64,000 nt of DNA from Gammaproteobacteria bacterium (GTDB lineage: Bacteria; Pseudomonadota; Gammaproteobacteria; Pseudomonadales; Pseudohongiellaceae): the NCBI GenBank assembly GCA_021773355.1, contig JAJFKE010000051.1, forward strand, positions 124,001 to 188,000. Direction: 5' to 3'. Positions 52,645 through 52,863 of this stretch are shown here, piece by piece. How positions within the stretch are numbered: position 1 is the first letter of the stretch; the number at the start of each line of letters is the position of its first letter. A program made the position numbers and the translations under genes. A model generated the notes under the pieces. That model was not told the origin of the DNA. It ran no database searches and saw only the letters and a program-made list of their open reading frames with translations.

Positions 52645-52863
52645 ATGAAGTTTGAAATCATTTATTGCGCAGCCTGAAACTACAAGCCTCAGGCCGACCG
52701 TGTGTCGGTAGAGATCAGGAACCGCGTTGGCGTTAAGCCTGCGCTGACCCCAGCCAGCGGAGGCGTGTTCGAGGTCAGGCAGAATGGCATTGTACTGTAC
52801 TCAAAAAGTAATACGGGGCGTTTCCCCGCCGCGGGTGAAATCGCTGCGTTGATCAATTCCTGA
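52645..52863 (+). CDS. Candidate selenoprotein, SelW-like (SelT/SelW/SelH family), UGA = Sec
   Basis: ATG at 52645; MKFEIIYCAA(U)NYKPQADRVSVEIRNRVGVKPALTPASGGVFEVRQNGIVLYSKSNTGRFPAAGEIAALINS*. TGA at 52675-52677 in the C-x-x-U position; hairpin ccgac-cgtgt-gtcgg at 52694-52708. Confidence 0.8.
52694..52708 (+). promoter_or_regulatory. Candidate bacterial SECIS element
   Basis: 5-bp stem CCGAC/GTCGG with CGUGU apical loop (G at second position), loop starts 22 nt after the in-frame UGA. Confidence 0.5.

What the first reader, a model, noticed from the sequence alone, without database searches (positions are those of the whole stretch)
52645..52863. Missed SelW-like selenoprotein with in-frame UGA and a SECIS-like hairpin
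Seen: ATG (52645) opens MKFEIIYCAA-TGA-NYKPQADRVSVEIRNRVGVKPALTPASGGVFEVRQNGIVLYSKSNTGRFPAAGEIAALINS-TGA, 72 residues if UGA is read through. The TGA is exactly at the second redox position of a CxxC/CxxU motif. A GGGGA Shine-Dalgarno-like stretch precedes the ATG. Established: SelW/Rdx-family proteins carry YCxxU/C near the N-terminus, then NY.P.A, GGVFEV..G...YSK..TGRFP.. and are about 70-90 aa; bacterial SECIS hairpins lie just downstream of the UGA with a G early in the apical loop. Here CCGAC-CGUGU-GUCGG starts 17 nt after the UGA. Inference: a genuine Sec-containing redox protein that the ORF track misses, showing only a spurious antisense ORF (52689..52886).
Basis: partly seen in the sequence, partly recalled or inferred. 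Interest (0 to 1): 0.88.

Follow-up and report, generated by a model that had tools for sequence, protein, structure and literature searches.

The report
Unannotated SelW-like bacterial selenoprotein gene
This is a real but ordinary gene for a tiny selenium-containing redox protein (SelW-like) that gene finders miss because its selenocysteine is written with a stop codon; the family is already known to be widespread in marine bacteria.

Summary
Window 52645..52863 (+) encodes a 72-residue Rdx/SelW-family protein whose residue 11 is an in-frame UGA in a CAAU (CxxU) motif. Pfam Rdx matches across the UGA (E 4.5e-15). The host genome holds tRNA-Sec, selA, selB and selD, and a second copy of the gene, also with UGA. 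Of 73 genomes in the genus, 46 carry a homologue, every one with UGA at this codon; two alignable distant homologues have Cys. The hairpin after the UGA is conserved: one pair joins two synonymous third-codon positions and is kept in 45 of 46 distinct sequences through six pair types (0 of 3,000 tree simulations reach this), so it is selected as RNA. A confident fold model matches solved SelW-related proteins (TM 0.89). Two other in-frame UGAs in the window fall on Gly and Arg positions in relatives and are not selenocysteine. The family is well known (SelW-like is the commonest selenoprotein in marine metagenomes, and its genes have been missed in annotation before), so this is a new member of a known kind. 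Expression was not shown; redox partner and substrate are unknown.

The parts
52630..52635 (+). Shine-Dalgarno-like AGGGGA, 9 nt before the ATG
   Evidence: Sequence; the second copy has AGAGGA at the same place.
52645..52863 (+). SelW-like (Rdx family) selenoprotein gene, 72 residues with UGA read as Sec
   Evidence: Pfam PF10262 E 4.5e-15, TIGR02174 above cut-off, 48 homologous places with UGA in 46 genomes, fold match.
52666..52677 (+). Codons for the redox motif C-A-A-U (CxxU), residues 8-11
   Evidence: Cys8 and residue 11 invariant in 29 aligned homologues.
52675..52677 (+). In-frame UGA, selenocysteine codon 11
   Evidence: UGA at this codon in all 46 same-genus genomes with a homologue; the two alignable distant homologues have Cys here.
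52694..52708 (+). Bacterial SECIS-like hairpin CCGAC-CGUGU-GUCGG, G at the second loop position
   Evidence: Pairing and covariation in 46 distinct sequences; fold.
52861..52863 (+). Terminal stop, also UGA
   Evidence: Sequence; some homologues also end in UGA, others in UAA or UAG.

Best explanation
It is a SelW-like selenoprotein of the Rdx family. Ribosomes start at 52645 and reach the UGA at codon 11. SelB carrying Sec-tRNA(Sec) binds the hairpin at 52694-52708 and inserts selenocysteine in place of termination, and translation then runs to the UGA at 52861. The product is a small thioredoxin-like protein whose Cys8/Sec11 pair sits in the loop after the first strand and probably cycles between reduced selenol/thiol and oxidised selenenylsulfide forms as a thiol oxidoreductase. 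Shown here: gene, family, fold, conserved UGA, hairpin covariation, presence of the Sec machinery. Inferred: actual Sec insertion and the redox role. Partner and substrate are unknown.
For: Rdx match over residues 4-71 and SelT/W/H subfamily match above cut-off. tRNA-Sec with anticodon TCA, selB, selA and selD, all above curated cut-offs. A second genomic copy with UGA, dN/dS 0.38 between the copies. 46 of 73 same-genus genomes carry it, every one with UGA; Cys at this position in two more distant homologues. The pair of third-codon positions of Ala17 and Ser21 is paired in 45 of 46 distinct sequences as CG, TG, GT, TA, AT or GC; it is the best of 105 third-position pairs (z 7.2, 0 of 2,000 shuffles), and none of 3,000 tree simulations reaches it. 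Fold model pLDDT 92.9 from 29 sequences matches SelW-related crystal structures, TM 0.89.
Against: No expression or selenium-incorporation data. The single-sequence hairpin energy is not unusual. The window copy lacks the strong hairpin that follows the stop of the second copy and lies beside transposase genes, so this copy could be poorly expressed. The NCBIfam Campylobacterota SelW equivalog model is missed narrowly (78.5 of 88 bits).
Confidence: 0.96

Rival explanations
1. The window copy is a non-expressed duplicate (young pseudogene) of the copy on contig C16, which is the working gene.
For: The window copy lacks the strong hairpin after the stop, lies next to transposase genes, and differs from the second copy at 9 residues.
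Against: Frame, start, ribosome-binding-like site, UGA and SECIS-like hairpin are all intact in both copies, and dN/dS between them is 0.38, which suggests selection on at least one since duplication.
Confidence: 0.12
2. A Cys or other codon mutated to UGA, giving a truncated pseudogene; there is no selenocysteine.
For: The window holds two other genes with an in-frame TGA that are better explained this way.
Against: UGA is fixed in 48 homologous places across the genus, with no Cys form there; the coding frame continues after it, the hairpin covaries, and the Sec machinery is present.
Confidence: 0.02
3. The sense frame is not a gene and the antisense ORF 52689..52886 is.
For: It is an open frame listed by a mechanical caller.
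Against: The sense frame has Pfam, NCBIfam and fold matches and is conserved as protein in 46 genomes; the antisense frame then follows as a shadow. It was not searched against the libraries on its own.
Confidence: 0.01

Closest known systems
SelW-like bacterial selenoproteins (Sargasso Sea and GOS selenoproteomes; PMC1088965, PMC2398784)
   Same: CxxU motif, bacterial SECIS just after the UGA, short protein, marine bacteria; few or no Cys homologues in Sec-using organisms (PMC1794560).
   Different: No difference in kind; this host genome has two diverged copies in gene neighbourhoods not seen in the relatives.
Campylobacterota SelW (NCBIfam NF041051; Campylobacter jejuni selW on CJnc60, PMC11955535)
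   Same: Best NCBIfam model by score, similar length, UGA read as Sec; in C. jejuni full-length translation past the UGA is supported by Ribo-seq and proteomics.
   Different: The window protein scores 78.5 against a cut-off of 88; a homologue from the same genus passes at 91.7.
SelW-related bacterial proteins of known structure (2fa8, 2ojl, 2p0g, 2obk, 3dex)
   Same: Same fold, TM 0.86-0.90 over the whole protein.
   Different: About 24-29% identity and longer chains (103-108 residues).
Mouse SelW (2npb)
   Same: Same superfamily, detected by profile.
   Different: Eukaryotic SECIS elements lie in the 3' UTR (PMC1088965); weaker structural match, TM 0.59.

Membership tests
Rdx / SelT-SelW-SelH family (PF10262, TIGR02174) | Sequence profile match above the curated cut-off | tested here: met
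   PF10262 56.1 bits against 22.6; TIGR02174 46.1 against 34.2.
Rdx / SelT-SelW-SelH family (PF10262, TIGR02174) | CxxC or CxxU motif after the first strand | tested here: met
   C8-A-A-U11; both positions invariant in 29 homologues; model strand 3-8 and helix 14-28 flank it.
Rdx / SelT-SelW-SelH family (PF10262, TIGR02174) | Thioredoxin-like SelW fold | tested here: met
   TM 0.89 to 2fa8 with a pLDDT 92.9 model.
NF041051 SelTWH_Campy equivalog | Score above the equivalog cut-off of 88 bits | tested here: not met
   78.5 bits, so it is not filed under this equivalog; a homologue from the same genus reaches 91.7.
Bacterial selenoprotein | Host encodes SelA, SelB, SelD and tRNA-Sec | tested here: met
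Bacterial selenoprotein | SECIS hairpin just downstream of the UGA with a G in a small apical loop | tested here: met
   Hairpin with loop CGUGU, conserved with covariation. bSECISearch itself was not available.
Bacterial selenoprotein | Sec/Cys exchange among homologues | tested here: met
   Cys at this position in L072 and L073 from other families of the order; these are distant (32-33% identity), and no Cys form was seen within the genus.
Bacterial selenoprotein | Selenium incorporated into the protein | not testable with these tools
   Needs 75Se labelling or mass spectrometry.
SelW function | Thiol redox activity or glutathione/thioredoxin partner | not testable with these tools
   Biochemistry needed.

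The most novel reading that the evidence does not exclude
The two SelW-like copies in this genome have diverged inside the CxxU motif (CAAU and CTAU) and in their surroundings, and have become specialised for different partners or conditions.
Probability: 0.12. Interest if true: 0.3.

Novelty: new member of a known kind. Interest (0 to 1): 0.25.

Why it matters
It is one more example of a short selenoprotein gene that standard gene callers overlook, in a gammaproteobacterial genus where such genes are common. The covariation between synonymous sites is a clean sign that the hairpin is under selection as RNA. It opens no new mechanism.

Tried and rejected
Phage records and viral contigs: no homologue found. 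The protein database search found nothing, which would be expected if Sec genes are truncated in predicted proteomes. Co-occurrence of the gene with selA within the genus was not informative: 41 of 46 genomes with the gene and 24 of 27 without it have selA, because the genus uses Sec generally. Single-sequence folding energy was uninformative. A structure model without an alignment was poor (pLDDT 50.8) and was replaced by one from 29 sequences. An alignment with the wrong strand for L022 was discarded and redone. The idea that the two copies form a mobile cassette was considered: the shared unit is about 500 bp at 79-80% identity with no third copy in the genome, so nothing supports it. Other in-frame TGA genes in the window were tested and rejected as selenoproteins.

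Full report
What is there. Window 52645..52863 on the + strand opens with ATG after a GGGGA stretch, meets TGA at codon 11 (52675-52677), and continues open to a second TGA at 52861-52863, giving 72 residues if the first UGA is read through.

Family. With the UGA scored as Cys, the protein matches Pfam Rdx (PF10262) over residues 4-71 with E 4.5e-15 and the SelT/SelW/SelH subfamily model TIGR02174 above its cut-off. The best NCBIfam model, the Campylobacterota SelW equivalog NF041051, is narrowly missed (78.5 of 88 bits), while a homologue from the same genus passes it (91.7). A structure model built from 29 homologues is confident (pLDDT 92.9) and matches SelW-related crystal structures over its whole length (2fa8, TM 0.89). 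A profile also reaches mouse SelW.

Machinery. The host genome (5.08 Mb, 55 contigs, 98% complete) holds tRNA-Sec with anticodon TCA, selB, selA and selD, each above the curated cut-off.

Conservation of the UGA. Among 119 genomes searched, the window's own included, 46 of the 73 in the same genus carry a homologue, in 48 places, and each place has exactly one TGA inside the match; translation puts it at the same codon. A Cys form in the genus would have been found just as well by this search; none was. The five weak matches in other families of the order have no stop, and the two that my re-alignment recovered show C-x-x-C. By exact contig coordinates, one same-genus genome (G025) is the record titled uncultured Pseudohongiella sp., so the window most likely comes from a Pseudohongiella-like gammaproteobacterium.

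The hairpin. Starting at the 17th base after the UGA, CCGAC-CGUGU-GUCGG folds as a five-pair stem with a five-base loop whose second base is G. Its energy alone is unremarkable. Across 46 distinct sequences, the pair between the third positions of the Ala17 and Ser21 codons is kept in 45, as CG (15), TG (7), GT (7), TA (6), AT (5) and GC (5). In the window both codons (GCN, TCN) are fourfold degenerate at that site, so the protein does not require the match. Of 105 pairs of third-codon positions this one has the strongest excess of pairing (45 against 21.9 expected, z 7.2, none of 2,000 shuffles), and none of 3,000 simulations in which the two sites evolve independently on the family tree reaches 45 (mean 21.3, maximum 44). 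The simulation uses a simple substitution model with rates fitted roughly, so the exact tail probability should not be leaned on; the size of the gap should. This is direct evidence of selection on RNA structure. A divergent subgroup (L065-L070) has a different sequence, such as GGCTGTCAGTCTGGCAGCC, that also folds into a hairpin at the same place in most members.

The second copy. The genome has another copy at C16:702788-703003 with 86% protein identity, also with UGA. The two share about 500 bp including upstream sequence, differ at 16 positions in the coding region (9 residues), and have dN/dS 0.38. The C16 copy is followed by a very stable hairpin that the window copy lacks. In relatives the gene often lies near an alkaline-phosphatase-like gene and either an OFA-type transporter-like gene or uridine-kinase-like and nucleoside-transporter-like genes (these names come from reading the sequences, not from a family search); the window copy instead has an MFS transporter gene upstream and transposase genes downstream.

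Controls within the window. A scan for genes with an in-frame TGA found two others that match known families: an amidohydrolase at 24316..25629 (-) and an MscS-type channel at 16537..17580 (+). In close relatives the TGA positions are Arg and Gly respectively, and the frames are mostly intact. They are best read as nonsense mutations or sequence errors, not selenocysteine, which shows that the tests used here separate the two cases.

What is known. [quoted passage not shown] it was 11.3% of marine selenoprotein genes in a 2021 survey (PMC9402790). SelW genes completely missed by annotation were reported in Epsilonproteobacteria (PMC4607533), and C. jejuni SelW has Ribo-seq and proteomic support for translation past the UGA (PMC11955535). 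No paper in the searched library mentions both Pseudohongiella and selenocysteine. The finding is therefore a correct, well-supported new member of a known family.

What is shown and what is inferred. Shown: the gene, its family and predicted fold, the fixed UGA, the covarying hairpin, and the Sec machinery. Inferred from established knowledge of bacterial Sec decoding and of the Rdx family: SelB-dependent insertion and a thiol redox role. Unknown: expression, substrate and partner.

Noticed in passing
window 24316..25629 (-): Amidohydrolase (PF07969) with an in-frame TGA where the five closest relatives have Arg; a middle part present in relatives is missing, so this is a decayed gene and not a selenoprotein.
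   Followed up: yes
window 16537..17580 (+): MscS-type channel gene with an in-frame TGA where the three closest relatives have Gly; otherwise intact, so a recent nonsense mutation or a sequence error.
   Followed up: yes
window 53070..54410 and 54703..55392 (+): Two transposase genes (DDE_Tnp_1_4 type, and an IS110 type that looks shortened) directly downstream of the selW copy.
   Followed up: partly
L002 1730-1775 (contig C16 copy): Very stable hairpin (z -5.3) just after the stop of the second selW copy, absent from the window copy.
   Followed up: partly
L071: A same-genus homologue whose frame decays after about residue 54, in a genome (G017, 92% complete) where selA was not found; possibly a selW lost along with Sec use.
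   Followed up: partly
L065-L070: Divergent SelW subgroup (CVQU motif) with a different hairpin sequence after the UGA; one genome (G057, L069) carries two copies about 5.5 kb apart.
   Followed up: no
G000:C16:362264-363184 (L052): The selD match lies in an open frame of 771 codons, longer than selD alone, possibly a fusion protein.
   Followed up: no
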